A stretch of 62,190 bases of DNA from contig CANQDJ010000005.1 in the NCBI GenBank assembly GCA_947592005.1, forward strand, positions 1-62,190, read 5' to 3'. The stretch comes from an uncultured Anaeroplasma sp. GTDB taxonomy: Bacteria > Bacillota_I > Bacilli_A > Acholeplasmatales > Anaeroplasmataceae. How positions within the stretch are numbered: position 1 is the first letter of the stretch; each line of letters begins with the position of its first letter. Under the pieces are notes generated by a model. The model saw only the letters and a program-made list of their open reading frames with translations, made no database searches and was not told the origin of the DNA. Positions 9,810 through 49,617 of this stretch are shown here, one piece after another. The position numbers and the translations under genes are program-made.

Positions 9810-10382
9810 ATGGTAAGAAAAAATGAAATAGAACAAATAAAACAAGAAATTGAAGAATATGTTCGGGAAGATAACGGAGTATATAAAGAAGATAAAGAAA
9901 CTTCTACGATTTTAATTTATTTTTCCAAAGATATGTTGGCGGATTCTTATGGTGGAAAAGCAGTATTGGGAGAAGATATTTTTCATTATGTGGAAAATAC
10001 GTTTAAATTAGTGAATAAAAAGAAAAAAATAGAACTTGAATTTATCTTTGGCGAAGAAATAGAACCAAAAGAACAAGAAGAAGTAATAAAACTTTTTAAA
10101 ATGCATTACGCTATTGAAATTGTTCAATGCCGTAAACAATTAGTTAAAACGAGAATTGTAAGTGGTATTTTATTATTGGTAGGTATTTTGTTTTTAATTG
10201 TATATGGGGTGGTTGCGTATGGAAATAAAGATTTTATATTCGAAAATGTTCTTGAGATTGTATCGTGGGTATTTATTTGGGAGGCTGCCAATCAGTTTTT
10301 CTTTGAAAATGCTTCTAATAAAAGGGATATGATTCGTAATATTTGTTTATTTCGGGCAGAAATAAAAAAAGGGAAACAGTAG
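9810..10382 (+). CDS. small two-helix membrane protein, unknown function
   Basis: I do not recognise this 190-residue protein. The first ~110 residues are charged and look cytosolic. Two hydrophobic segments follow at about 113-137 (GILLLVGILFLIVYGVV) and 143-163, then a basic tail. GAGGTAGTG lies just before ATG 9810, and the gap to the choloylglycine hydrolase is only 12 bases, so the two are probably one transcript. No secretion or lipoprotein signal is visible. Confidence 0.75.
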   Translation: MVRKNEIEQIKQEIEEYVREDNGVYKEDKETSTILIYFSKDMLADSYGGKAVLGEDIFHYVENTFKLVNKKKKIELEFIFGEEIEPKEQEEVIKLFKMHYAIEIVQCRKQLVKTRIVSGILLLVGILFLIVYGVVAYGNKDFIFENVLEIVSWVFIWEAANQFFFENASNKRDMIRNICLFRAEIKKGKQ

Positions 10383-38223: not shown

Positions 38224-38248
38224 CTGTTTGCCTTTAAAGGAGAGTAAT

Positions 38249-41200
38249 ATGAAGTTAAAAAAATTGTTTTTATTTTTATTTTTAATATTTGGGTTGGTAT
38301 CGATTACATCTTGTCGATATAAACAAGAAGAACCGAAAGATGAACCACAAATACCGACGGAACCAAGCGATTCGAATGGTAATGAAAGTGAGGAAAATAC
38401 CAACGATAATACCGATAAGGAAGATGAAGGAAACACGAGTGGCAACACAAGTGGAAATACCGATAACGAAAACACAGGAAACGAAGGAAACACGAGTGGT
38501 AACACCGATAAGGAGAATGAACAAAATCCTTCAAAACCGAGTGATGGAGAATCTGTCACGCAAGGGGAAATCAAGATTAAGAGTTATGGTGGTTATAATG
38601 AGGCCGCTTATGTGGAATTTGAGAAATCGCAAGTAAATACAGCGACATATAATGTTTATATTGCGGATACCAAAGATGGTAATTTTAAATTATTGGATTC
38701 TAAATCCGTTTATATACGAAATCTTTCTTCTGTTGTTCGTGCTGATTTGTTTGGATTGGCAAAAGGAGAATATAGAATTAAGATTGTTCCTGTTATAGCA
38801 GGAATGGAAAGTAATGCTAAACCAAGTACTTGTATTGTTAATGTAAAAGAATATGATCGTTCCGGATATGCTCATTTTAAATATACGGAAGGTGTTGGAG
38901 CGTATAAAGACGACGGAACATTAAAAGATGACGCTATTGTTGTTTATGTAACAGAAGAAAACAAGGATACGATAATGGGCGATATCCCTCAATTACAACA
39001 ATATATGTTTCAAGTTCCGGGACCGGATTGGGGAAATAAAAAGGCTACAAGTATCGGTTGGTGGTTAAACAATGCCCAATATACAAAGAAAGATTCCAAA
39101 GGAAATCCTGGAAATACATATTCTGCCTCTGGGAAGACATTGGGATTATATAGTGTAGTGGAAAATCACCCGATTGTGTTCCGTTTCGTTGGTACGGTTA
39201 CTACTCCGGAAGGCTGTACGGCGTATGATTCTTTGAATGAAGGCGGAAGTGAAGGAGATAACGGGCATATGGCTCGTATGAAAGATTTACGAAATGTTAC
39301 TTTAGAAGGTGTCGGAAATGATGCCATTATCGATGGCTGGGGTTTTCATTTTATGGCAAGTGAAACCACAGGGGAACGGGGTAAAAATTTTGAAGTTCGG
39401 AATTTGACTTTCGTTAATAATGCCGAAGATGCGGTAGGTATGGAAGGCGTTCAATTATCAAGTAATGTAAATTCGGAAATAACTGCCCCTGTGAAGAATT
39501 GTTGGGTTCATCATTGTACCTTTTTCCCAGGATATTCGGCAAAACCTGCCGAATCGGATAAAGCAGAAGGCGATGGATCTTGTGATTTTAAACGTGGTTT
39601 TAATTTTACATTATCTTATTGTTATTTTGAATATTGTCATAAAACAAATTTATTTGGATCTTCCAGTACGTCTTTACAATATAATATATCTATGCATCAT
39701 AATATATGGTATAATTGCGGTTCGAGAATTCCGCTTGTTCGTAATTCTAATGTTCATTTTTATAATAATTTGGTTACGGCTGATGGTAAGGCATCAACAA
39801 AGACAGCGAGTCGTATTCATTCAACCGTAGGAATGGAAAGTAGTCCTAGTTATGTTTCTTCTTTACGAGCAAATGCGTTTATGTATTCCGAAAATAATTA
39901 TTTTGATGGAGCAAAACAAGTATTTGAAACAGGTGAAGGCGGCGGGGTAGCCAAGTGTTATGGAAATATTTATGTATCTTGTTATCAAAAGCCGGTTGGA
40001 GCAACGGAAGTTACGGAAAGAACCACTACTGTAAGTAATACATGTAAATATGCTTTCAAAGGGATAGATTATTCTTCTTTTGATACAAATCCGAATATTT
40101 TCTATTACGATTCCGTCAACGGCAAATCGGATTGTTATTTGACATCGGCTGTGGTAGCGAGAGAAGAATGTTTAAAATATTCGGGGTCATTATTCCGAAC
40201 GGAGTTAGATGGAACTTCTTTGGGGTTAAAAACCGAAGCAAATGAGGTTACTCCTGAAAGTGCGGTTGTTTTATCCGATACTAAATTTGTAGCACCTTTC
40301 GCTTCTGTAAAAGGAACATCGATAAAAGATAATATTTATTTTTATAATATTTCAGGTTTTGACTCTAATTCTTGTAAGTTTAAAGGTCAAGGTGTAACAT
40401 TCAAATTAGAAGAATACGCTACAGTTACAATCGAATTGTCGGCATCTGTTAATGGATATTCGACAGGATATTTAGTATCTTCCAAAGGAGATTTGCTTCT
40501 TTCCGGAAGTGGTAGTGTTGTTTTAGAGCCGGGAATTTATTTTATAACTTCCTTCCAAAAAGATAAAGAAACAGTGCTTACGAAATTGGAATTTGAGAAA
40601 TATGATTCTGATGAATTAAAACAAAGGAAATTAGAGGAGTATAACACAAAAGTTTCTTTGATTCCGTCGACGATTACATATGATAAAGATTGTTATGCTC
40701 TTATCAAAGACGCAATGAATGCGTATGAAGCATTGGGTAAAGATTTACAAAATGAAGTCGATAATACCCGAGTTGTTTCGGCGTTGAATGAATATGTTGC
40801 GTTAGGAAAAGCTCAAGTTGAAAATTATATTTCTTTAATTGGAACGGTAGATGCTTCTAGTGGAGCGGCTATTCAATTAGCCCGTAGGGAATATGAGTAT
40901 TTAAAGAGTATTGATTCTATGGTTGTTATTTCTAATTATGATATATTAGTGACTGCGGAAACGGCATTTTCTTCCTTTGCAGTTCAATCTTGTATAGATA
41001 AGATTGAAGCGATTGGTGTCGTTACATTAGATAGCAAAGATGCGATTGAATTGGCTCGTGCGGAATATGATGCATTGACGGAAGAGCAAAAGAATTTAAT
41101 AACCAATTATAATGTTTTGTTAAAGGCAGAACAAGATTATAGAACTTTAGAAGAAATAATGGAAGTAAATAATCAAATTCAAGAAGCGGATTTAAATGAT

Positions 41201-41803
41201 ATGGCTTCTATGAAAGCGGCAATTCAAGCATTTAATGCTTTAACCAACGATCAACAAAATCAAATTACGGAAACAGAAAAATTATCTCAAATAAAGGTTA
41301 CATACACCAAGAAGTTGATTGATTCTATTCAAACGGTTACCCTTTCTTCAGGACAAATCATTGTTGAAGCGGAAGAGATGTATGCTTCCTTAAGCACAGT
41401 AGAGCAAGGATTAATCGATAATTACGATACGCTTCTTTCTGCAAGACAAAAGTATAATGAACTTGCCTCTACCGTTCACGAAAAAACATTTGAGAATGGT
41501 TTGACGGACGATATATTTACTATTGAAGGAAATTTGAGTAGCAAGTCATTATCTAAAGAGTATAATGGAAAAACGTATACTAAAGCAATGAAGATGGAAA
41601 GTTCTACTACCATTCGGTTTAATACGACTACGACAAGAACACTTGTGATTGTAACCGATGCGGCAAGTGGTGCTAAAATTAAAATTGATAATGTTTCTCA
41701 AACAGTAGATGCAGATGGAGTTTTAAGAATAACCATTCAAGCAGGAGAACATACCATCGGAAAGGATACATCATTAAATATTTTTGCATTAATTTTGGAG
41801 TGA
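38249..41803 (+). CDS. PL1-type pectate lyase lipoprotein with helical repeats
   Basis: 1184 residues. The lipobox is VSITSC (Cys22), then a Glu/Asn/Thr-rich linker (about 25-105) and an FN3-like domain (about 108-205). The beta-helix lyase domain (about 300-550) contains VTLEGVGNDAIIDGWGF, WVHHCTF, KAEGDGSCDFKRG and the PL1 arginine motif R-x-P-x-x-R (RIPLVRNSNVHFYNN). Helical repeats with the pattern NYD-x-L-x-x-A follow (about 794-1077), then a C-terminal beta module (about 1080-1184) shared with the next gene. ATG 38249 follows AAAGGAGAG; the upstream extension to 38228 is rejected. It would cleave pectate at the cell surface. The helical repeats may span the wall. Confidence 0.87.
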   Translation: MKLKKLFLFLFLIFGLVSITSCRYKQEEPKDEPQIPTEPSDSNGNESEENTNDNTDKEDEGNTSGNTSGNTDNENTGNEGNTSGNTDKENEQNPSKPSDGESVTQGEIKIKSYGGYNEAAYVEFEKSQVNTATYNVYIADTKDGNFKLLDSKSVYIRNLSSVVRADLFGLAKGEYRIKIVPVIAGMESNAKPSTCIVNVKEYDRSGYAHFKYTEGVGAYKDDGTLKDDAIVVYVTEENKDTIMGDIPQLQQYMFQVPGPDWGNKKATSIGWWLNNAQYTKKDSKGNPGNTYSASGKTLGLYSVVENHPIVFRFVGTVTTPEGCTAYDSLNEGGSEGDNGHMARMKDLRNVTLEGVGNDAIIDGWGFHFMASETTGERGKNFEVRNLTFVNNAEDAVGMEGVQLSSNVNSEITAPVKNCWVHHCTFFPGYSAKPAESDKAEGDGSCDFKRGFNFTLSYCYFEYCHKTNLFGSSSTSLQYNISMHHNIWYNCGSRIPLVRNSNVHFYNNLVTADGKASTKTASRIHSTVGMESSPSYVSSLRANAFMYSENNYFDGAKQVFETGEGGGVAKCYGNIYVSCYQKPVGATEVTERTTTVSNTCKYAFKGIDYSSFDTNPNIFYYDSVNGKSDCYLTSAVVAREECLKYSGSLFRTELDGTSLGLKTEANEVTPESAVVLSDTKFVAPFASVKGTSIKDNIYFYNISGFDSNSCKFKGQGVTFKLEEYATVTIELSASVNGYSTGYLVSSKGDLLLSGSGSVVLEPGIYFITSFQKDKETVLTKLEFEKYDSDELKQRKLEEYNTKVSLIPSTITYDKDCYALIKDAMNAYEALGKDLQNEVDNTRVVSALNEYVALGKAQVENYISLIGTVDASSGAAIQLARREYEYLKSIDSMVVISNYDILVTAETAFSSFAVQSCIDKIEAIGVVTLDSKDAIELARAEYDALTEEQKNLITNYNVLLKAEQDYRTLEEIMEVNNQIQEADLNDMASMKAAIQAFNALTNDQQNQITETEKLSQIKVTYTKKLIDSIQTVTLSSGQIIVEAEEMYASLSTVEQGLIDNYDTLLSARQKYNELASTVHEKTFENGLTDDIFTIEGNLSSKSLSKEYNGKTYTKAMKMESSTTIRFNTTTTRTLVIVTDAASGAKIKIDNVSQTVDADGVLRITIQAGEHTIGKDTSLNIFALILE
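38429..38513 (+). repeat. short repeats encoding the Asn/Thr/Ser linker
   Basis: The unit GGAAACACGAGTGG recurs (about 38429 and 38486) with related AACACAAGTGG and ACCGATAA blocks, giving the NTSGNTD-type linker. Such tracts can change length by slippage. Confidence 0.6.
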
Positions 41804-41807
41804 TTTT

Positions 41808-44090
41808 ATGAGAAAAAGAATGTTTTTCTTCATGATAAGTTGTTTTCTATTTTTAACGATTACATCTTGTCGAAATAAACAACAAACAGATCCTGTTACA
41901 CCGGAAGTTCCCGAACCTCAAGAGCCACAAGAACCGGAGAATAATACTGGTAATACCAACACCCCTAGTAGTGGCGATACAGGAAATATAGAAGGCCCGA
42001 ATACCCCTAGTAGCGGTGACACAGGAAATACAGAAGGCTCGAACACCCCTGGCGGTGGCGGAAACACAGGGGAACCCAATACGCCGGAAGTGAAACCAAT
42101 CGATCCAAATGATCAAGTAGAAGTGCTAGAAGTGGAAGGATATTTGGAATCTGCATATATAGAATGGAAACGGGTAGATGGGGCGGATTCTTATAATGTC
42201 TATTATAAAAGTAAGAATTCTTCCACATATAAAAGAATCGATGATATGTTGATTCGAGGATATAAAGAATATATGCGTGCCGATGTTTTGGGTTTGAAGG
42301 AAGGCGAATATACTTTAAAAGTTATTCCGGTAGACGAAGGGAAAGAAGCGGATATTTATGCCGAAAGAAATGTAACGGTGGTTTCTCATAATCGTTCCGG
42401 CTTTGCGTTTTCTTCGAAATCGCCGGTTAAAACGGCTTCCGGTGCGTATAATGACGATGGTACGTTAAAAGAAAATGCCCAAGTAATTTATATTACTTCC
42501 AAAACGGCTAAGACTTGTCAGGCAAGAGTCAATGGTCAAACGGTTGTTGGTTTTCAAGCGATTTTAAATGCCAAACAGAAAAAGGGAACGAGTGGCGATA
42601 TTTTGTGTTTTAGAATTATCGGAAAAGTTTCTTTAGCGGATTTGGATAGCATATCCAGTAGTGAAGAAGGGCTTCAAGTAAAAGGGGCAGCGGCTTATTC
42701 GGAAATGAATATTACTATTGAAGGCATCGGAGAAGATGCCACCATTCATGGTTTTGGATTTTTAATTCGAAATTGTGCGAATGTGGAATTTAGAAATTTC
42801 GCAATAATGGCTTTTATGGACGATGGTGTTTCAATAGATACCAATAACTGTAATATTTGGGTTCATAATTTGGATATTTTCTATGGCTCAACCGGTGGAG
42901 ATGCCGATCAAGCCAAAGGAGATGGTTCGGTAGATATTAAGGGTAAATCAACATATATTACAGTATCTTATGTTCATTTTTGGGATTCGGGAAAATGTTC
43001 TTTATGCAGAATGGGCGACAGTGAAGAATTTTTGGTAACGTATCACCATAATTGGTTTGATCATTCGGATTCCAGACACCCAAGAATTCGGAAGGCTTCC
43101 GTCCATATTTATAATAATTATTTTGATGGAAATTCCAAATATGGTGTAGGTGTAACCAATGGAAGTTCGGCTTTTGTAGAGGCAAATTGTTTTAGAAAAT
43201 GTAAGAATCCGATGATGTCTTCTTTACAAGGAACAGATTTGTTAGGAAAGGGTACTTTTTCTGGTGAATCGGGAGGTATGATTAAGGCCTACAATAATAA
43301 AATTATCGGAGCACATAGTTTGATTTATGCCAATTCCGATTTAGGAACGACAAGTGGAAACGCAACAAGTTTTGATGCATATTTGGCAACGTATAGAGAT
43401 GAAATTATTGCCGATTCGTTCCGAACAGTAGGGGGCGGAACCATATATAATAATTTTGATACAAGTGCCGATTATGATTTGGGAGTGAATCCGGAAGATA
43501 TCGATGATCCGGAAAATGTTGTGGAAATCGTTAAGAAATATGCGGGACGTATGAATGGTGGAGATGTTTCTTGGAATTTCGATGATGCGGAAGATGAGAA
43601 TTATAGTGTTATTTCGGGATTGAAAGAGTACATTGTTAATTATAAATCCTTGGTTTTAACGATTGGAACGGGGAATGTAGAAGAGTCCGGTTCAACGGGT
43701 GGAAATACAGAAGAAGAACCGGAAAAACCGACGAACCCTAGTATCAGTGGATCTGTAGTTCATAACTTTACAACCGATGATAAGAATAGTACTTTATTTT
43801 CTATAACCGGCAATACGTCAACCAGTAAGGGTACGGTAACGTATAAGGATTTGGTTCTTACCAAATGTTTAAAAATGGAAAGTTCCACTAGTATTAAATT
43901 CAAGATTGAAGAGGAAATGACGATTTATCTTGTTTTAATTGAAAAGAGTGGAAATATTAAAATAGATGACAAAAAATATACGGCTGTCGATGGAATTATT
44001 ACTTTGGATTTGACAGTGGGAGAACATGAAATAACCAAGGCCGATACGGCGAATTTGTATTATATTGAACTGGTTTCAAAAGTAAATTAA
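41808..44090 (+). CDS. PL1-type pectate lyase lipoprotein
   Basis: 760 residues. The lipobox is TITSC (Cys21), then a Pro/Glu and Asn/Thr/Gly linker with tandem repeats, and an FN3-like domain (about 105-200) like the one in the upstream gene. The PL1 beta-helix (about 225-530) has ITIEGIGEDATIHGFG, WVHNLDIFYG, KGDGSVDIKGKS, VSYVHFWDSGK, and the catalytic arginine motif RHPRIRKASVHIYNNYF. A C-terminal beta module (about 647-760: KMESSTSIKF ... GEHEITKADTANLYYIEL) is paralogous to the upstream protein's tail. GGAGTGAT overlaps the upstream stop; ATG 41808. Expected to be a Ca-dependent pectate lyase on the cell surface. Confidence 0.9.
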   Translation: MRKRMFFFMISCFLFLTITSCRNKQQTDPVTPEVPEPQEPQEPENNTGNTNTPSSGDTGNIEGPNTPSSGDTGNTEGSNTPGGGGNTGEPNTPEVKPIDPNDQVEVLEVEGYLESAYIEWKRVDGADSYNVYYKSKNSSTYKRIDDMLIRGYKEYMRADVLGLKEGEYTLKVIPVDEGKEADIYAERNVTVVSHNRSGFAFSSKSPVKTASGAYNDDGTLKENAQVIYITSKTAKTCQARVNGQTVVGFQAILNAKQKKGTSGDILCFRIIGKVSLADLDSISSSEEGLQVKGAAAYSEMNITIEGIGEDATIHGFGFLIRNCANVEFRNFAIMAFMDDGVSIDTNNCNIWVHNLDIFYGSTGGDADQAKGDGSVDIKGKSTYITVSYVHFWDSGKCSLCRMGDSEEFLVTYHHNWFDHSDSRHPRIRKASVHIYNNYFDGNSKYGVGVTNGSSAFVEANCFRKCKNPMMSSLQGTDLLGKGTFSGESGGMIKAYNNKIIGAHSLIYANSDLGTTSGNATSFDAYLATYRDEIIADSFRTVGGGTIYNNFDTSADYDLGVNPEDIDDPENVVEIVKKYAGRMNGGDVSWNFDDAEDENYSVISGLKEYIVNYKSLVLTIGTGNVEESGSTGGNTEEEPEKPTNPSISGSVVHNFTTDDKNSTLFSITGNTSTSKGTVTYKDLVLTKCLKMESSTSIKFKIEEEMTIYLVLIEKSGNIKIDDKKYTAVDGIITLDLTVGEHEITKADTANLYYIELVSKVN
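41958..42072 (+). repeat. 42-base tandem repeat in the lyase linker
   Basis: A 42-base (14-codon) unit encoding NTPSSGDTGN-x-EG-x occurs twice in full (41958-41999 and 42000-42041) and once in degenerate form. It keeps the frame, so copy number could vary without breaking the gene. Confidence 0.8.
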
Positions 44091-44204: not shown

Positions 44205-44233
44205 TTGATTATTTTTATTAAAAGTTTTATAAT
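44205..44233 (+). promoter_or_regulatory. nifJ promoter
   Basis: TTGATT (44205-44210), a 17-base spacer and TATAAT (44228-44233). Confidence 0.75.
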
Positions 44234-44273
44234 AGATATTGACAAAATATTTAAACTCATTAGGAGGGAAAAA

Positions 44274-47200
44274 ATGAGCAATGAAATTAAAAGAATGGCA
44301 ATAGACGGAAACTATGCTGCAGCATATTCCTCTTATGCCTTTACTGAGGTTGCCGGTATTTATCCGATTACCCCATCTTCACCAATGGCGGAATATACGG
44401 ATGAATGGGCTTCTCAGGGAAAGAAAAATCTTTTCGGAATGCCTGTTCGAGTTGTAGAAATGCAATCTGAAGGTGGAGCAGCCGGAACAGTTCACGGTTC
44501 TTTACAAGCAGGAGCATTAACAACAACTTATACGGCTTCTCAGGGATTGTTATTAAAAATTCCGAATATGTATAAGATTGCGGGAGAATGTTTACCAGGA
44601 GTAATTCATGTTTCTGCACGTACACTTGCGGCACAATCTCTATCTATTTTCGGTGATCATCAAGACGTAATGGCTTGTCGTCAAACCGGCTTCGCTATGT
44701 TGTGTTCCGGTTCTGTCCAAGAAGTTATGGATTTAGCCGGTGTTGCACACTTGACGGCGATTAAGACAAGTATTCCATTCTTACACTTCTTTGATGGTTT
44801 TAGAACATCTCATGAGGTAAATACGATTCATCCTATCGATTATGAGGTATTCGATAAGTTATTGGATCGAGATGCGGTGGCTAAATTTAGAAGCAACGCA
44901 TTAAATCCGGCTCATCCGAAAACTCGTGGTACGGCACAAAATGATGATGTTTATTTCCAAACAAGAGAATTACAAGCCAAAAAATATGCCGATGTTGTAG
45001 ATGTTGCGGAAAAATATATGGCTGAAATTGGAAAAGTAACCGGACGTACCTATAAAGCATTCGATTATTATGGAGCAAAAGATGCTGAATATGTAATCGT
45101 AGCAATGGGTTCTGTTACGCAATGTGCAGAAGAGGTTATTGATTATTTAACTGCCAAAGGAGAAAAGGTTGGTATTGTTAAAGTTCATGTTTATCGTCCT
45201 TTTGACACGAAGAGATTTTTGGCGGCAATGCCTAAAACAGTAAAGAAAATCGCAGTATTGGATAGAACGATTGAACAAGGTGCATTATACGAGCCTTTAT
45301 GCTTAGATGTTAAATCCGTATACTATGGAATGAACAATGCTCCGGTTATCGTTGGTGGACGGTATGGTTTATCTTCTAAAGATACTACTCCGGATATGGT
45401 AAATGCCGTATTTACAAACTTAAAGAATAAAAAGCCTATGGATCATTTCGTAGTTGGTATCGAAGATGATATCGATCATACATCTTTACCTCTTGGCAAG
45501 AGTATCGATGTTGCCGATCCTACAACGACCGAATTGTTATTCTTCGGTTTGGGTTCAGATGGAACGGTTGGAGCATGTAAAAACATTTCTAAGATTGTAG
45601 GAGATTACACTTCTTACTATTCACAAAGTTATGCAGCATATGACTCTAAGAAATCCGGTGGTTCTACTCGTTTGCATTTACGTTTCTCTAAAAAACCGAT
45701 TCGTTCTACTTACTTAGTAAATCAACCACATTTCGTATCTTGTTCACTAGATGCATATTTAGATAAATTTGATATGATTTCCGGTTTACGTGATGGTGGT
45801 ACGTTCTTATTGAATACAGTTGTAGATAAGGATCATATCGAACAACGTTTACCGAATAGTTATAAGAGAATCTTAGCCCAAAAGCATGCGAAATTCTACA
45901 TAATTGCCGCAAATGCTGCCGCAAGAGAATGTGGGTTCCGTCCGGGCTTAGGTGTTAATACCATTATGCAATCTGCATTCTTCAAATTAAATGAACAAAT
46001 TATGGATTATGAAGAAGCAAAAGAGCATATGAAAGAATTTGCTACAAAGACTTATTTAAGAAAAGGTCAAGAATTGGTTGATCAAAACCATAAGGCAATC
46101 GATATGGGTGGCTCAAGATTGGTAGAAGTAGAAGTTAAACCGGAATGGGCTAATTTGAAAGACGAAGTTAAGAAAGTAGATATGTCAAGACCTGAATTCG
46201 TTAGAGAGATTTCCGATGTAATCAATTCTATCAAAGGTGATTCTTTACCATTATCCGCATTTGCAAAATATGGTGATGATTGTCATATGCCACAAGGAAC
46301 AGCCGCTTATGAAAAGCGTGGTGTTGCGACAGATGTACCTCTATGGAATCCAGATAACTGTATTCAATGTAATCAATGTGCATTTGTATGTCCACATGCT
46401 TGTATTCGTCCGTTCTTATGTACGGAAGAAGAAGTTAACAATGCACCTGCCGAAGCAAAATTTTTACCTGCTACAGGATTTAAGGATTATAAATACACAT
46501 TACAAATTTCCACATTGGATTGTACGGGTTGCGGTGTATGTTTGACGGTATGTCCTGGCAAGCCTAAGACAGCAGAAGATGGAACAAAAACGAAATCTCC
46601 TGCATTGACTTCTCATACTATGGCACAATCTCGTGAAAATAAAGAAGCAGAAACTTGTGCTTACTTCTATGATCATGTTTCTTATAAAGGCGATATTGCC
46701 GGAACAAACAACGCAAAGAATGTTCAATTTTCTAAACCGTTATTTGAATTCTCCGGAGCCTGTGGCGGTTGTGGTGAAACTCCGTATGTTAAGGCTGTTT
46801 CTCAATTATTCGGCGATAGAATGATGGTTGCCAACGCAACAGGTTGTACCTCTATTTATTCCGGTTCTTATCCGTCTAGCCCATATACGACTAACGCAGA
46901 AGGTCGTGGACCAGCATGGGCAAACTCTTTGTTTGAGGATAATGCGGAATTTGGATTTGGTATGAGAATGGCAGTAGAAACTTTAAGAGATAGAATTCAA
47001 ACCGTAATGGCTTTGAATAAAGAAGAAATGCCTGCCGATGTACAACAATTATGTACCGATTGGATTGAAAATCGTGCTGATGGTGAAAAAACGAAAGAAT
47101 TGGCACCGAAGATTGTAGCCGCAATGGAAAAAATCCATGCTCCATACGCAAAAGAGATTTTATCATTGAAGGATTATTTGGTTAAGGTTTCTCAATGGAT

Positions 47201-47852
47201 TATCGGTGGTGATGGTTGGGCTTATGATATCGGGTATGGTGGATTAGATCATGTGATTGCCAATAATCAAGATGTCAATATTTTGGTTGTAGATACTGAA
47301 GTTTATTCTAATACCGGTGGTCAAGCATCTAAGTCTTCAAGAACCGGTGCGATTGCGAAGTTTGCTGCCGCAGGAAAACCGACTTTCAAAAAGGATTTGG
47401 CTTCTATCGCAATGTCTTATGGTCATGTCTATGTAGCGACAATTTCTCATGGATATAATCAAAATCAAGTAATTAAAGCGTTGAAAGAGGCAGAGGCTTA
47501 TCATGGTCCATCTATTGTAATTTGTTATGCACCATGTATTGCTCATAACATTAAGAAAGGATTATTTATGTCACAAATGGAGGCTAAGAAGGCAACAGAA
47601 TGCGGATATTGGCCTACATTCAGATACAATCCGGACTTGGCTAAAGAAGGAAAGAACCCATTCACAATGGATTCTAAAGAACCAGATTGGTCAAAATACA
47701 ATGACTTCTTAATGAATGAAGGAAGATATGCTCAATTAGTTAAGGTAAATCCGGAAAAGGCTCAAGAACTTCTTGAGTGGAATTTAAAGGACGCTCAAAA
47801 GCGATATGCAAATTATATGGCACTTGCGAATAGAGAGTTTCCGAATAAGTAA
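44274..47852 (+). CDS. nifJ: pyruvate:ferredoxin (flavodoxin) oxidoreductase
   Basis: Single-chain PFOR, 1192 residues: pyruvate + CoA + oxidised ferredoxin to acetyl-CoA + CO2 + reduced ferredoxin. The order is standard: domain I (YPITPSSPMAEYTDEW), domain III-type gamma region, two [4Fe-4S] ferredoxin motifs (CIQCNQCAFVCPHACIRP and CTGCGVCLTVCPG), then the TPP domain with GACGGCGETPYVK and GDGWAYDIGYGGLDHV. ATG 44274 follows AGGAGGG. Codons here favour strongly expressed forms. It is oxygen-sensitive, supporting an anaerobic lifestyle, and supplies acetyl-CoA to citrate synthase. Confidence 0.97.
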   Translation: MSNEIKRMAIDGNYAAAYSSYAFTEVAGIYPITPSSPMAEYTDEWASQGKKNLFGMPVRVVEMQSEGGAAGTVHGSLQAGALTTTYTASQGLLLKIPNMYKIAGECLPGVIHVSARTLAAQSLSIFGDHQDVMACRQTGFAMLCSGSVQEVMDLAGVAHLTAIKTSIPFLHFFDGFRTSHEVNTIHPIDYEVFDKLLDRDAVAKFRSNALNPAHPKTRGTAQNDDVYFQTRELQAKKYADVVDVAEKYMAEIGKVTGRTYKAFDYYGAKDAEYVIVAMGSVTQCAEEVIDYLTAKGEKVGIVKVHVYRPFDTKRFLAAMPKTVKKIAVLDRTIEQGALYEPLCLDVKSVYYGMNNAPVIVGGRYGLSSKDTTPDMVNAVFTNLKNKKPMDHFVVGIEDDIDHTSLPLGKSIDVADPTTTELLFFGLGSDGTVGACKNISKIVGDYTSYYSQSYAAYDSKKSGGSTRLHLRFSKKPIRSTYLVNQPHFVSCSLDAYLDKFDMISGLRDGGTFLLNTVVDKDHIEQRLPNSYKRILAQKHAKFYIIAANAAARECGFRPGLGVNTIMQSAFFKLNEQIMDYEEAKEHMKEFATKTYLRKGQELVDQNHKAIDMGGSRLVEVEVKPEWANLKDEVKKVDMSRPEFVREISDVINSIKGDSLPLSAFAKYGDDCHMPQGTAAYEKRGVATDVPLWNPDNCIQCNQCAFVCPHACIRPFLCTEEEVNNAPAEAKFLPATGFKDYKYTLQISTLDCTGCGVCLTVCPGKPKTAEDGTKTKSPALTSHTMAQSRENKEAETCAYFYDHVSYKGDIAGTNNAKNVQFSKPLFEFSGACGGCGETPYVKAVSQLFGDRMMVANATGCTSIYSGSYPSSPYTTNAEGRGPAWANSLFEDNAEFGFGMRMAVETLRDRIQTVMALNKEEMPADVQQLCTDWIENRADGEKTKELAPKIVAAMEKIHAPYAKEILSLKDYLVKVSQWIIGGDGWAYDIGYGGLDHVIANNQDVNILVVDTEVYSNTGGQASKSSRTGAIAKFAAAGKPTFKKDLASIAMSYGHVYVATISHGYNQNQVIKALKEAEAYHGPSIVICYAPCIAHNIKKGLFMSQMEAKKATECGYWPTFRYNPDLAKEGKNPFTMDSKEPDWSKYNDFLMNEGRYAQLVKVNPEKAQELLEWNLKDAQKRYANYMALANREFPNK

Positions 47853-47870
47853 AAATTAAAAACAATAAAG

Positions 47871-47910
47871 AAAAATGCTATGTATCTTTCGGTATATAGC
47901 ATTTTTTATT
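47871..47910 (+). terminator. nifJ terminator
   Basis: AAAAATGCTATGTA (47871-47884) pairs with TATATAGCATTTTT, one G-U, 8-base loop. Confidence 0.85.
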
Positions 47911-48021: not shown

Positions 48022-48738
48022 ATGAATTACTCGTATAATCAAATAATAACAGAAAATGAAAAATATAAAATAACCGAAGAAAAATTTAATAAGATATTAG
48101 ATAAAAATCATATTTATATCGCTCGTTTTGACGGAGTACATATGGCTAAAAAGTTATCTTCGAAATCCGAGAATAAAAAAATATTTCAAACGATTTTTTC
48201 TTCTGCTACCGAAGAATTTATAAAATGTTATCCGCAAATTAAATTCGGATATTGTTTCAGTGATGAAATATCTATTATTTTAGAGCATTCTTTATTGAAT
48301 TTATATAACTATCGGATTGAAAAGATTTTATCGGTTCTTACTAGTAAATTAACTTCTTGTTTTATTATGGCAGTGTTAAAAAAGGGATATAATCTTCAAG
48401 AATCAATTCCGGGATTTGATTGTCGGATTTTATCTTTTCAAACAACAGAAGAAGTTACGGATTATTTTATTTCTAGGCAGGCTTTTTGTATAATAAATCA
48501 TCTTTATTATTTAAGAAATAACAAATTGATAAAATATAATTTAACGAATTCTTATCAAATTATCGGAGAGTTAAATAAGATTCATTTTAATTATTATACG
48601 GTGCCTGTTGAAGAAAAATATGGTTTTTTATGGATAAATAAAGGGTATCAAAGAGTTTATGAATTTAAAAAAAATTCCGCTCGATTTCTCCTTTCTATTA
48701 AATATAGAAAGAATTGGAATTATAAAAAAAGAAAGTAG
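48022..48738 (+). CDS. Thg1-like protein (3'-5' nucleotidyltransferase)
   Basis: Resembles tRNA-His guanylyltransferase and its bacterial Thg1-like relatives, which add nucleotides to RNA 5' ends in the 3'-5' direction and can repair truncated tRNAs. The first metal-site motif is ARFDGVH (34-40; RxDG-like, Asp37). The second is FSDEISIIL (79-87; the SDE triad with Asp81 and Glu82). Then FDCRILSF (132-139) and the C-terminal DYFISRQAFCIINHLYYL (147-164), matching the Thg1 DY-x3-RQ-x5-N block. The length of 238 residues is the usual size. AAGGAT precedes ATG 48022. It is followed 12 bases later by endonuclease IV. Activity and RNA target are unknown. Confidence 0.82.
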   Translation: MNYSYNQIITENEKYKITEEKFNKILDKNHIYIARFDGVHMAKKLSSKSENKKIFQTIFSSATEEFIKCYPQIKFGYCFSDEISIILEHSLLNLYNYRIEKILSVLTSKLTSCFIMAVLKKGYNLQESIPGFDCRILSFQTTEEVTDYFISRQAFCIINHLYYLRNNKLIKYNLTNSYQIIGELNKIHFNYYTVPVEEKYGFLWINKGYQRVYEFKKNSARFLLSIKYRKNWNYKKRK

Positions 48739-48750
48739 GTTTGAAAAAAA

Positions 48751-49581
48751 ATGTTTAAAATAGGGTGTCATTTATCCATCAGCAATGGATTTTTAAGTGC
48801 CGGAAAAGAGATTGTGTCTATCGGTGGTAATGTGTTTCAATATTTTTCTAGGAATCCGCAAGGCGGAGGAATGAGGGCTTGGAATCAAAAAGATTTTGAC
48901 GATTTTATGATTTATGCTGAACAAAATCATATCGAAACTTTATTATGCCATGCTCCATATACTTTAAATGCTTGTTCGGCAAAGCCGGATACGAGAGATT
49001 TTGCTAGAAGATGTTTTAAAGAGGATATCGCTATGTTGGAACATTTTCCTCACGCATATTATAATTTTCATCCGGGTAGTCATACCGGACGGGGAGTGGA
49101 AATTGGAATTGCCGAAATTGCGGAAGTTTTGAATGAAGTATTATATGAAGATATGAAGACTACCGTTGTTTTAGAATGTATGGCAGGAAAAGGGAGCGAA
49201 ATCGGCAGAAGTTTTGAGGAGATAGCCGAAATTATTTCGAAAGTAAAATTAAAAGATAAATTGGGTGTATGTTTGGATACTTGTCATGTTTATTCGGCAG
49301 GATATGATATTGTGAATCATTTGGACGATGTTTTAAAAGAATTTGATGCGATTATAGGATTAGATCGGTTGAAGGCGATTCATTTGAATGATTCGAAAAT
49401 GCCGTTTGCGTCCAATAAGGATCGCCATGAGAAAATAGGACAAGGAACGATAGGGTTAGAAGCCATTCTTCGAATCATCAATCACCCGAAGTTAAGGGAT
49501 TTGCCTTTTTATTTGGAAACGCCGAATGAATTGGAAGGGTATAAAGAAGAAATTGAACTTTTAAAATCAAAAAGAATATAA
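48751..49581 (+). CDS. nfo: endonuclease IV (AP endonuclease)
   Basis: Zn-dependent TIM-barrel enzyme nicking DNA at abasic sites in base-excision repair. Typical segments are GCHLSISNGF (5-14), VFQYFSRNPQGG, LLCHAPYTLNACS, YNFHPGSHTG, LECMAGKG, LGVCLDTCHVYSAGYD, and IHLNDSKMPFASNKDRHEKIGQG, which supply the metal ligands. At 276 residues it is normal length. It shares a transcript with the Thg1-like gene, and AGGT before the start overlaps that gene's stop. Confidence 0.95.
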   Translation: MFKIGCHLSISNGFLSAGKEIVSIGGNVFQYFSRNPQGGGMRAWNQKDFDDFMIYAEQNHIETLLCHAPYTLNACSAKPDTRDFARRCFKEDIAMLEHFPHAYYNFHPGSHTGRGVEIGIAEIAEVLNEVLYEDMKTTVVLECMAGKGSEIGRSFEEIAEIISKVKLKDKLGVCLDTCHVYSAGYDIVNHLDDVLKEFDAIIGLDRLKAIHLNDSKMPFASNKDRHEKIGQGTIGLEAILRIINHPKLRDLPFYLETPNELEGYKEEIELLKSKRI

Positions 49582-49585
49582 GTGG

Positions 49586-49617
49586 TCCGAAAATCTAATT
49601 TTCGGATTTCTTTTTTT
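49586..49617 (+). terminator. terminator after nfo
   Basis: TCCGAAAAT (49586-49594) pairs with ATTTTCGGA (49598-49606), 3-base loop, then Ts. Confidence 0.92.

What the first reader, a model, noticed from the sequence alone, without database searches (positions are those of the whole stretch)
48022..48738. Bacterial Thg1-like 3'-5' polymerase next to endonuclease IV
The protein shows ARFDGVH, FSDEISIIL and the DYFISRQ block, the hallmarks of the Thg1 superfamily, the only known enzymes that extend RNA in the 3'-5' direction. Bacterial members are scattered and mostly repair tRNA 5' ends. Here the gene is in a likely operon with the AP endonuclease nfo, which suggests a nucleic-acid repair setting. 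A Thg1 relative in an anaerobic gut Firmicute with a large divergent C-terminus is worth attention. Sequence motifs are seen; activity is inferred.
Basis: partly seen in the sequence, partly recalled or inferred. Interest (0 to 1): 0.75.

Follow-up and report, generated by a model that had tools for sequence, protein, structure and literature searches.

The report
Divergent bacterial Thg1-like RNA-end polymerase
A gut bacterium carries a recently inserted gene for a small, divergent relative of the only known enzymes that lengthen RNA "backwards" (3'-5'), probably to mend damaged tRNA 5' ends; it belongs to a known family and its DNA-repair neighbour is probably there by chance.

Summary
ORF 48022-48738 (+, 238 aa) is a Thg1-superfamily protein (Pfam PF04446 E 1.9e-17, above the curated cut-off). 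All 32 significant PDB matches of its AlphaFold model are Thg1/TLP structures. The metal carboxylates (D37, D81, E82) and other catalytic residues are kept, so it is probably active. The nfo link is not conserved: the two nearest relatives have por directly next to nfo without this gene, and no other Thg1 locus found lies by nfo. The gene has the lowest G+C of the window's 44 larger ORFs (24% against 35%), suggesting recent acquisition. The C-terminus is short, not large, but divergent. tRNA-His encodes G-1 opposite C73, so G-1 addition would be redundant. The protein belongs to a supported clade of short TLPs, patchy in gut Bacilli (2 of 27 genus genomes), distinct from the long TLPs common in viral contigs. 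Two clade members lie beside defence-type genes. Best reading: a solitary, probably mobile TLP doing template-dependent 5'-end RNA repair. New member of a known kind, divergent sub-branch. U5:U68 acceptor mismatches in two own tRNAs are an unproven lead.

The parts
48022..48738 (+). Thg1-like protein (TLP) gene, 238 aa; R35, D37, G38, S80, D81, E82, K101, D133, R135, R152, Q153 match superfamily-wide conserved residues
   Evidence: Pfam PF04446 E 1.9e-17; PHROG 4717; PDB sequence hits; fold matches; alignment with archaeal and viral TLPs
48130..48132 (+). codon of D37, predicted metal ligand (BtTLP D30, human D29)
   Evidence: alignment; role from PMC3701042
48262..48267 (+). codons of D81 and E82, predicted metal-site carboxylates (BtTLP D75, E76)
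   Evidence: alignment; role from PMC3701042
47963..47991 (+). promoter-like site TTGTCT-17-TATTAT upstream of the TLP gene (consensus match only; such matches are common in this AT-rich region)
47870..47907 (+). terminator-like hairpin after por, separating it from the TLP gene
44205..47852 (+). upstream neighbour, pyruvate:ferredoxin oxidoreductase-like gene (por; named from the sequence by eye), left border of the insertion site
48751..49581 (+). downstream neighbour nfo (deoxyribonuclease IV), right border of the insertion site; positional neighbour, not part of a conserved unit
   Evidence: TIGR00587 E 6.8e-87; empty site in relatives
49584..49608 (+). terminator-like hairpin just after nfo

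Best explanation
The gene encodes a small Thg1-like protein (TLP), a template-dependent 3'-5' RNA polymerase. It would adenylylate (or guanylylate) the 5' monophosphate of an RNA whose 5' strand is short of its 3' partner, then add NTPs that pair with the 3' strand, restoring a full acceptor stem. Its substrates are most likely 5'-damaged or 5'-truncated tRNAs or similar structured RNAs, not tRNA-His lacking G-1. It is a solitary accessory gene that arrived recently between por and nfo and is probably co-transcribed with nfo only because of its position. Shown here: family, fold, retained active-site residues, an encoded G-1 on tRNA-His, an empty site in relatives, patchy spread. Inferred: catalytic activity, tRNA repair as the reaction, and mobility as the cause of the patchiness.
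For: Thg1 profile and structure matches. Counterparts of the metal carboxylates and of ScThg1 R27, S75, K96 and R133 are kept (roles from PMC6471195 and PMC3701042). The Asn of eukaryotic Thg1 (ScThg1 N161) is absent, as in TLPs, which do templated repair. The model ends in a long beta hairpin (E202-216, E219-231) like the arm with which MaTLP holds the T arm. tRNA-His encodes G-1:C73. Purifying selection in the clade: dN 0.16, dS 1.0 between G047b and G044. Lowest G+C of 44 ORFs and an empty site in G002 and G004.
Against: No activity has been shown for any member of this clade. The KP-[YFN]-D motif carrying the activation lysine (BtTLP K43) is degenerate: K48 is only a tentative counterpart, and the clade profile aligns another residue there. 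The Trp of WRQ is Ser. No polynucleotide kinase, MACRO or RNA ligase gene adjoins it, and no RtcB was found in the genome. Mean model confidence is modest (pLDDT 72, C-terminal blocks 50-76).
Confidence: 0.62

Rival explanations
1. The clade is a conflict-related RNA-repair gene, carried in variable islands and kept because it reverses tRNA or RNA damage caused by phage, toxin or self-inflicted defence nucleases.
For: In G159 the gene overlaps by 4 bp a KAP-type NTPase that resembles defence candidate PDC-S49, beside a resolvase. In G047 one copy is next to an Mko-like helicase, an RNase III-like gene and a Schlafen/NB-ARC protein. Patchy, at changing sites. RNA-repair roles were proposed for bacterial and phage Thg1 (PMC2904730, PMC7824862).
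Against: Two loci only and no enrichment test; the window copy and the G022 and G044 copies have no such neighbours; PADLOC does not list the protein.
Confidence: 0.2
2. It edits tRNAs that are encoded with 5'-side acceptor mismatches, as TLPs do in slime-mould mitochondria.
For: Own tRNA-Arg(CCT) and tRNA-Thr(GGT) have U5:U68. TLP-less G004 has a paired Arg(CCT) with the same 3' strand. tRNA-His of TLP-bearing G159 has U5:U68 and U6:U67.
Against: 3 of about 101 tRNAs in TLP-positive against 0 of about 74 in negative genomes, one-sided Fisher p 0.19, on an incomplete sample; none seen in G022, G044, G047 or G050. Known editing is at the first positions, not position 5; U:U can be tolerated.
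Confidence: 0.06
3. It forms a functional DNA/RNA-repair operon with nfo.
For: 12-bp spacing to nfo and no terminator-like site found between them.
Against: Two relatives lack the gene at the same site; no other Thg1 locus found has nfo beside it in the flanks read. 10 of the 12 genus genomes in which nfo was found have no Thg1; G022 has both, unlinked.
Confidence: 0.03
4. It matures tRNA-His by adding G-1.
For: Superfamily name and chemistry.
Against: G-1 and C73 are encoded here and in all TLP-positive and TLP-negative relatives checked; most congeners live without the gene.
Confidence: 0.04

Closest known systems
Bacillus thuringiensis Thg1-like protein BtTLP (PDB 4kgk, 4kgm)
   Same: Best profile match among solved structures, E 2e-17; fold match over about 230 columns; same metal carboxylates.
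   Different: About 20% identical in the fold alignment; KP-FD motif degenerate, WRQ replaced by SRQ, slightly shorter (238 aa).
Archaeal TLP: MaTLP of Methanosarcina acetivorans (PDB 5axk-5axn) and Methanoperedens relatives (L010-L014)
   Same: Templated-repair type; 26% identity to L010; the model's C-terminal hairpin resembles the MaTLP arm.
   Different: The archaeal helical segment after RQ-x-E-x-W-RN is shortened or missing; separate branch of the tree.
Long phage TLPs (PHROG 4717; L041, L068, L069, L080-L159)
   Same: Same superfamily and core motifs.
   Different: Different clade; about 250-300 aa with inserts; very common in viral contigs, where the window clade was not found.
Eukaryotic Thg1 (human 3otb, 7cv1; Candida 3wbz)
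   Same: Fold and catalytic carboxylates.
   Different: Lacks the Asn equivalent to ScThg1 N161, and G-1 addition is not needed here, so it belongs with TLPs. The IINHLYY stretch resembles HINNLYN, but clade mates do not share it.

Membership tests
Thg1 superfamily (PF04446) | Significant match to the family profile | tested here: met
   E 1.9e-17, 63.9 bits against a cut-off of 29.2
Thg1 superfamily (PF04446) | Three active-site carboxylates (D, D, E) | tested here: met
   D37, D81, E82 aligned with the superfamily columns
Thg1 superfamily (PF04446) | Thg1 palm and fingers fold | tested here: met
   32 of 32 PDB hits at E <= 0.001 are Thg1/TLP, TM-scores 0.5-0.67; model confidence modest
Thg1 superfamily (PF04446) | Two aspartates close enough to share the metal ions | not testable with these tools
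   model coordinates are not exposed
Thg1 superfamily (PF04446) | 3'-5' nucleotide addition | not testable with these tools
   needs an enzyme assay
Thg1-like proteins (TLP) | No Asn at the ScThg1 N161 position (eukaryotic Thg1 marker) | tested here: met
   Y163 stands there by motif register in the alignments; marker from PMC6471195
Thg1-like proteins (TLP) | Conserved activation lysine (BtTLP K43, ScThg1 K44) | tested here: inconclusive
   K48 aligns in phmmer with the KP lysine of 3wbz, but the clade profile has another residue there
Thg1-like proteins (TLP) | Host tRNA-His already encodes G-1 (typical of bacteria with TLPs) | tested here: met
   G-1 and C73 in the gene
Thg1-like proteins (TLP) | Templated repair of 5'-truncated tRNAs | not testable with these tools
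   needs an enzyme assay
Bacterial Thg1 RNA-repair operons (PNK, MACRO, RNA ligase; PMC2904730) | Adjacent polynucleotide kinase, MACRO domain or RNA ligase gene | tested here: not met
   Immediate neighbours in the window are por, nfo and ABC transporters. In G047 a MACRO-SIR2 pair lies next to one TLP but on the opposite strand.
Anti-phage defence systems (PADLOC) | Match to a listed defence protein | tested here: not met
   no PADLOC hit for the window protein; defence-like neighbours only in G047 and G159

The most novel reading that the evidence does not exclude
This clade of short TLPs is a mobile, single-gene RNA-repair or editing function of gut Bacilli: either a defence-linked repair enzyme, or the first bacterial enzyme that restores acceptor stems encoded with 5' mismatches (U5:U68 in tRNA-Arg(CCT) and tRNA-Thr(GGT) here, U5:U68 and U6:U67 in tRNA-His of G159).
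Probability: 0.12. Interest if true: 0.78.

Novelty: new member of a known kind. Interest (0 to 1): 0.36.

Why it matters
What bacterial Thg1-like proteins do in cells is still open. This locus gives a natural experiment: close relatives with and without the gene at the same site, encoded G-1 in both, and a compact enzyme for biochemistry. If the acceptor-mismatch lead held, 5' tRNA editing would extend to bacteria.

Tried and rejected
Operon or functional link with nfo: rejected by the empty site in G002 and G004 and by the absence of nfo at other Thg1 loci. G-1 maturation as the need: rejected as unnecessary, since G-1 is encoded. Phage origin of this gene: close relatives were sought in viral contigs three times and in phage and plasmid records without a close match (two weak, distant phage hits only); the phage TLPs found with the canonical profile are a different clade. 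A repeat or transposon frame around the insert: only AT-rich repeats that look like chance. A gene remnant in G024 (L077) was not supported by tblastn. Weak hits L008 and L078 were not followed: L008 is a GGDEF-like sequence by eye, and L078 held no recognisable Thg1 ORF. RtcB as a partner: not found. Two apparent acceptor mismatches (L201, L207) were contig-edge artefacts. Mismatch enrichment in TLP-positive genomes: p 0.19, not shown.

Full report
What is there. Pfam assigns residues 18-138 to Thg1 with E 1.9e-17. The viral family PHROG 4717 'tRNA-His guanylyltransferase' extends the match to residue 219. NCBIfam names neither this protein nor the relatives tested. phmmer finds the solved Thg1/TLP structures, and a profile of six clade members finds 4kgk, the Bacillus TLP, at E 2e-17. 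An AlphaFold model (mean pLDDT 72, palm blocks mostly about 76-87) gives 32 PDB hits at E <= 0.001, all of them Thg1 or TLP, many aligned over 230 or more columns. The C-terminus is therefore divergent in sequence but of the same fold, and it is short rather than large.

Is it likely to be active? In an alignment with archaeal and phage TLPs, R35, D37, G38, S80, D81, E82, K101, D133, R135, R152 and Q153 are invariant. Several of their counterparts bind the metals or serve activation and transfer in Thg1 and BtTLP (PMC3701042, PMC6471195). Two features differ from the usual pattern. The KP-[YFN]-D motif with the activation lysine is degenerate, with K48 a tentative counterpart, and the Trp of WRQ is Ser. 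The Asn that marks eukaryotic Thg1 is absent, as in TLPs. Between two close members of the clade, dN is 0.16 against dS 1.0, so the clade appears to be under purifying selection.

The nfo neighbour. Endonuclease IV starts 12 bp after the stop codon, and a terminator-like hairpin separates the TLP gene from por upstream. Co-transcription with nfo is plausible. But the relatives with the most similar nfo, G002 (86%) and G004 (80%), have por directly followed by nfo with a gap of about 120 bases and no Thg1 gene. In most other congeners nfo follows a different gene, conserved among them (by eye a pyruvate kinase; no family search), so the por-nfo pair is itself recent. None of the other Thg1 loci has nfo in the flanks read. 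The TLP gene has the lowest G+C of the 44 window ORFs of 150 aa or more: 24.4% against a mean of 34.7%. The simplest reading is a recent single-gene insertion between por and nfo. Loss in both relatives is possible but less economical.

Distribution and kin. Thg1 matches occur in 2 of 27 genus genomes and 8 of 55 family genomes, the window's own included in both (one of the eight is a weak GGDEF-like hit and one lies on a phage-like contig), 10 of 160 order genomes and 10 of an even draw of 395 class genomes. Two main kinds were found. Long TLPs on phage-like contigs (G029, G268, G291, G432) match a group that is very common in IMG/VR (at least 587 stretches). The window protein, with those of G022, G044, G047 (two copies), G050 and G159, forms a separate clade of short TLPs (support 95/84; window and G022 sisters 95/88), though branches are long and the bootstrap had not settled. 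A further truncated copy in G043 was not in the tree. The clade was not found in viral contigs, phages or plasmids. Its genes sit at different places in different genomes, even for the two sister copies of this genus.

Contexts that hint at conflict. In G159 the TLP gene overlaps by 4 bp a KAP-type NTPase resembling the defence candidate PDC-S49, next to a resolvase. In G047 one copy is beside a helicase resembling Mko proteins, an RNase III-like gene and a Schlafen/NB-ARC protein, and the other is beside a MACRO-SIR2 pair on the opposite strand. Anantharaman and colleagues linked bacterial Thg1 to polynucleotide kinase, MACRO and RNA ligase genes and proposed RNA repair (PMC2904730). Jumbo-phage Thg1 has been read the same way (PMC7824862). 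Two loci are a hint, not a test, and the window copy has no such neighbour.

What it does not need to do. tRNA-His here and in every TLP-bearing and TLP-less relative checked encodes G-1 opposite C73, so G-1 addition is redundant. No RtcB ligase was found.

An unproven lead. Two of the 26 tRNAs found in this genome have a U5:U68 mismatch in the acceptor stem, Arg(CCT) and Thr(GGT). The TLP-less G004 has a paired Arg(CCT) with the same 3' strand. tRNA-His of TLP-bearing G159 has two U:U mismatches. After contig-edge artefacts were removed, 3 of about 101 tRNAs in TLP-positive genomes and none of about 74 in negative ones carry such mismatches, p 0.19 on an incomplete sample; initiator tRNA, normally unpaired at 1:72, was left out. 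This does not show editing. It names two tRNAs whose mature sequences would decide it.

Verdict. A genuine, probably active, divergent Thg1-like protein. Best explanation: a solitary, probably recently acquired template-dependent 3'-5' RNA polymerase for 5'-end repair of tRNA or similar RNA. It is a member of a known kind, in a sub-branch that the family libraries used here do not name separately.

Noticed in passing
L032:1501-1577 and L036:1501-1574 (G000:C45 and C1); L168 tRNA-His (G159:C25): U:U mismatches at acceptor position 5:68 (and 6:67 in G159 tRNA-His) in genomes that carry a short TLP; sister G004 has a fully paired tRNA-Arg(CCT). Not significant on the sample read (3/101 against 0/74, p 0.19).
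   Followed up: partly
L067:1-2473 (G159:C52): A short-clade TLP gene overlaps by 4 bp a KAP-type NTPase gene resembling defence candidate PDC-S49, beside a resolvase and DUF3825 and DUF4145 proteins.
   Followed up: partly
L043:2820-9577 and L043:13557-16449 (G047:C5): Two TLP copies 13 kb apart in one genome: one beside an Mko-like helicase, RNase III-like and Schlafen/NB-ARC genes, the other beside a MACRO-SIR2 pair.
   Followed up: partly
L065:1453-2163 and L066:1456-2163 (G376, G192): Very divergent Thg1-family proteins of about 235 aa with altered active-site motifs (YDDK, DDEF in place of SDE); possibly inactive or of changed function.
   Followed up: no
window 9810-10382 and L044:10032-10619: A conserved protein of about 190 aa with no Pfam or NCBIfam match; its relative in G050 (43% identical) directly follows or overlaps the TLP gene there, while in the window it lies 38 kb away.
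   Followed up: partly
window 38228-44090: Two large pectate lyase proteins with C-terminal CBM77 modules in tandem, just upstream of por; pectin degradation.
   Followed up: no
viral loci L080-L159; L041 (G029:C1): Long TLPs are very common in IMG/VR viral contigs (587 or more stretches), many on large contigs; few were detected in the INPHARED phage records with the window query.
   Followed up: partly
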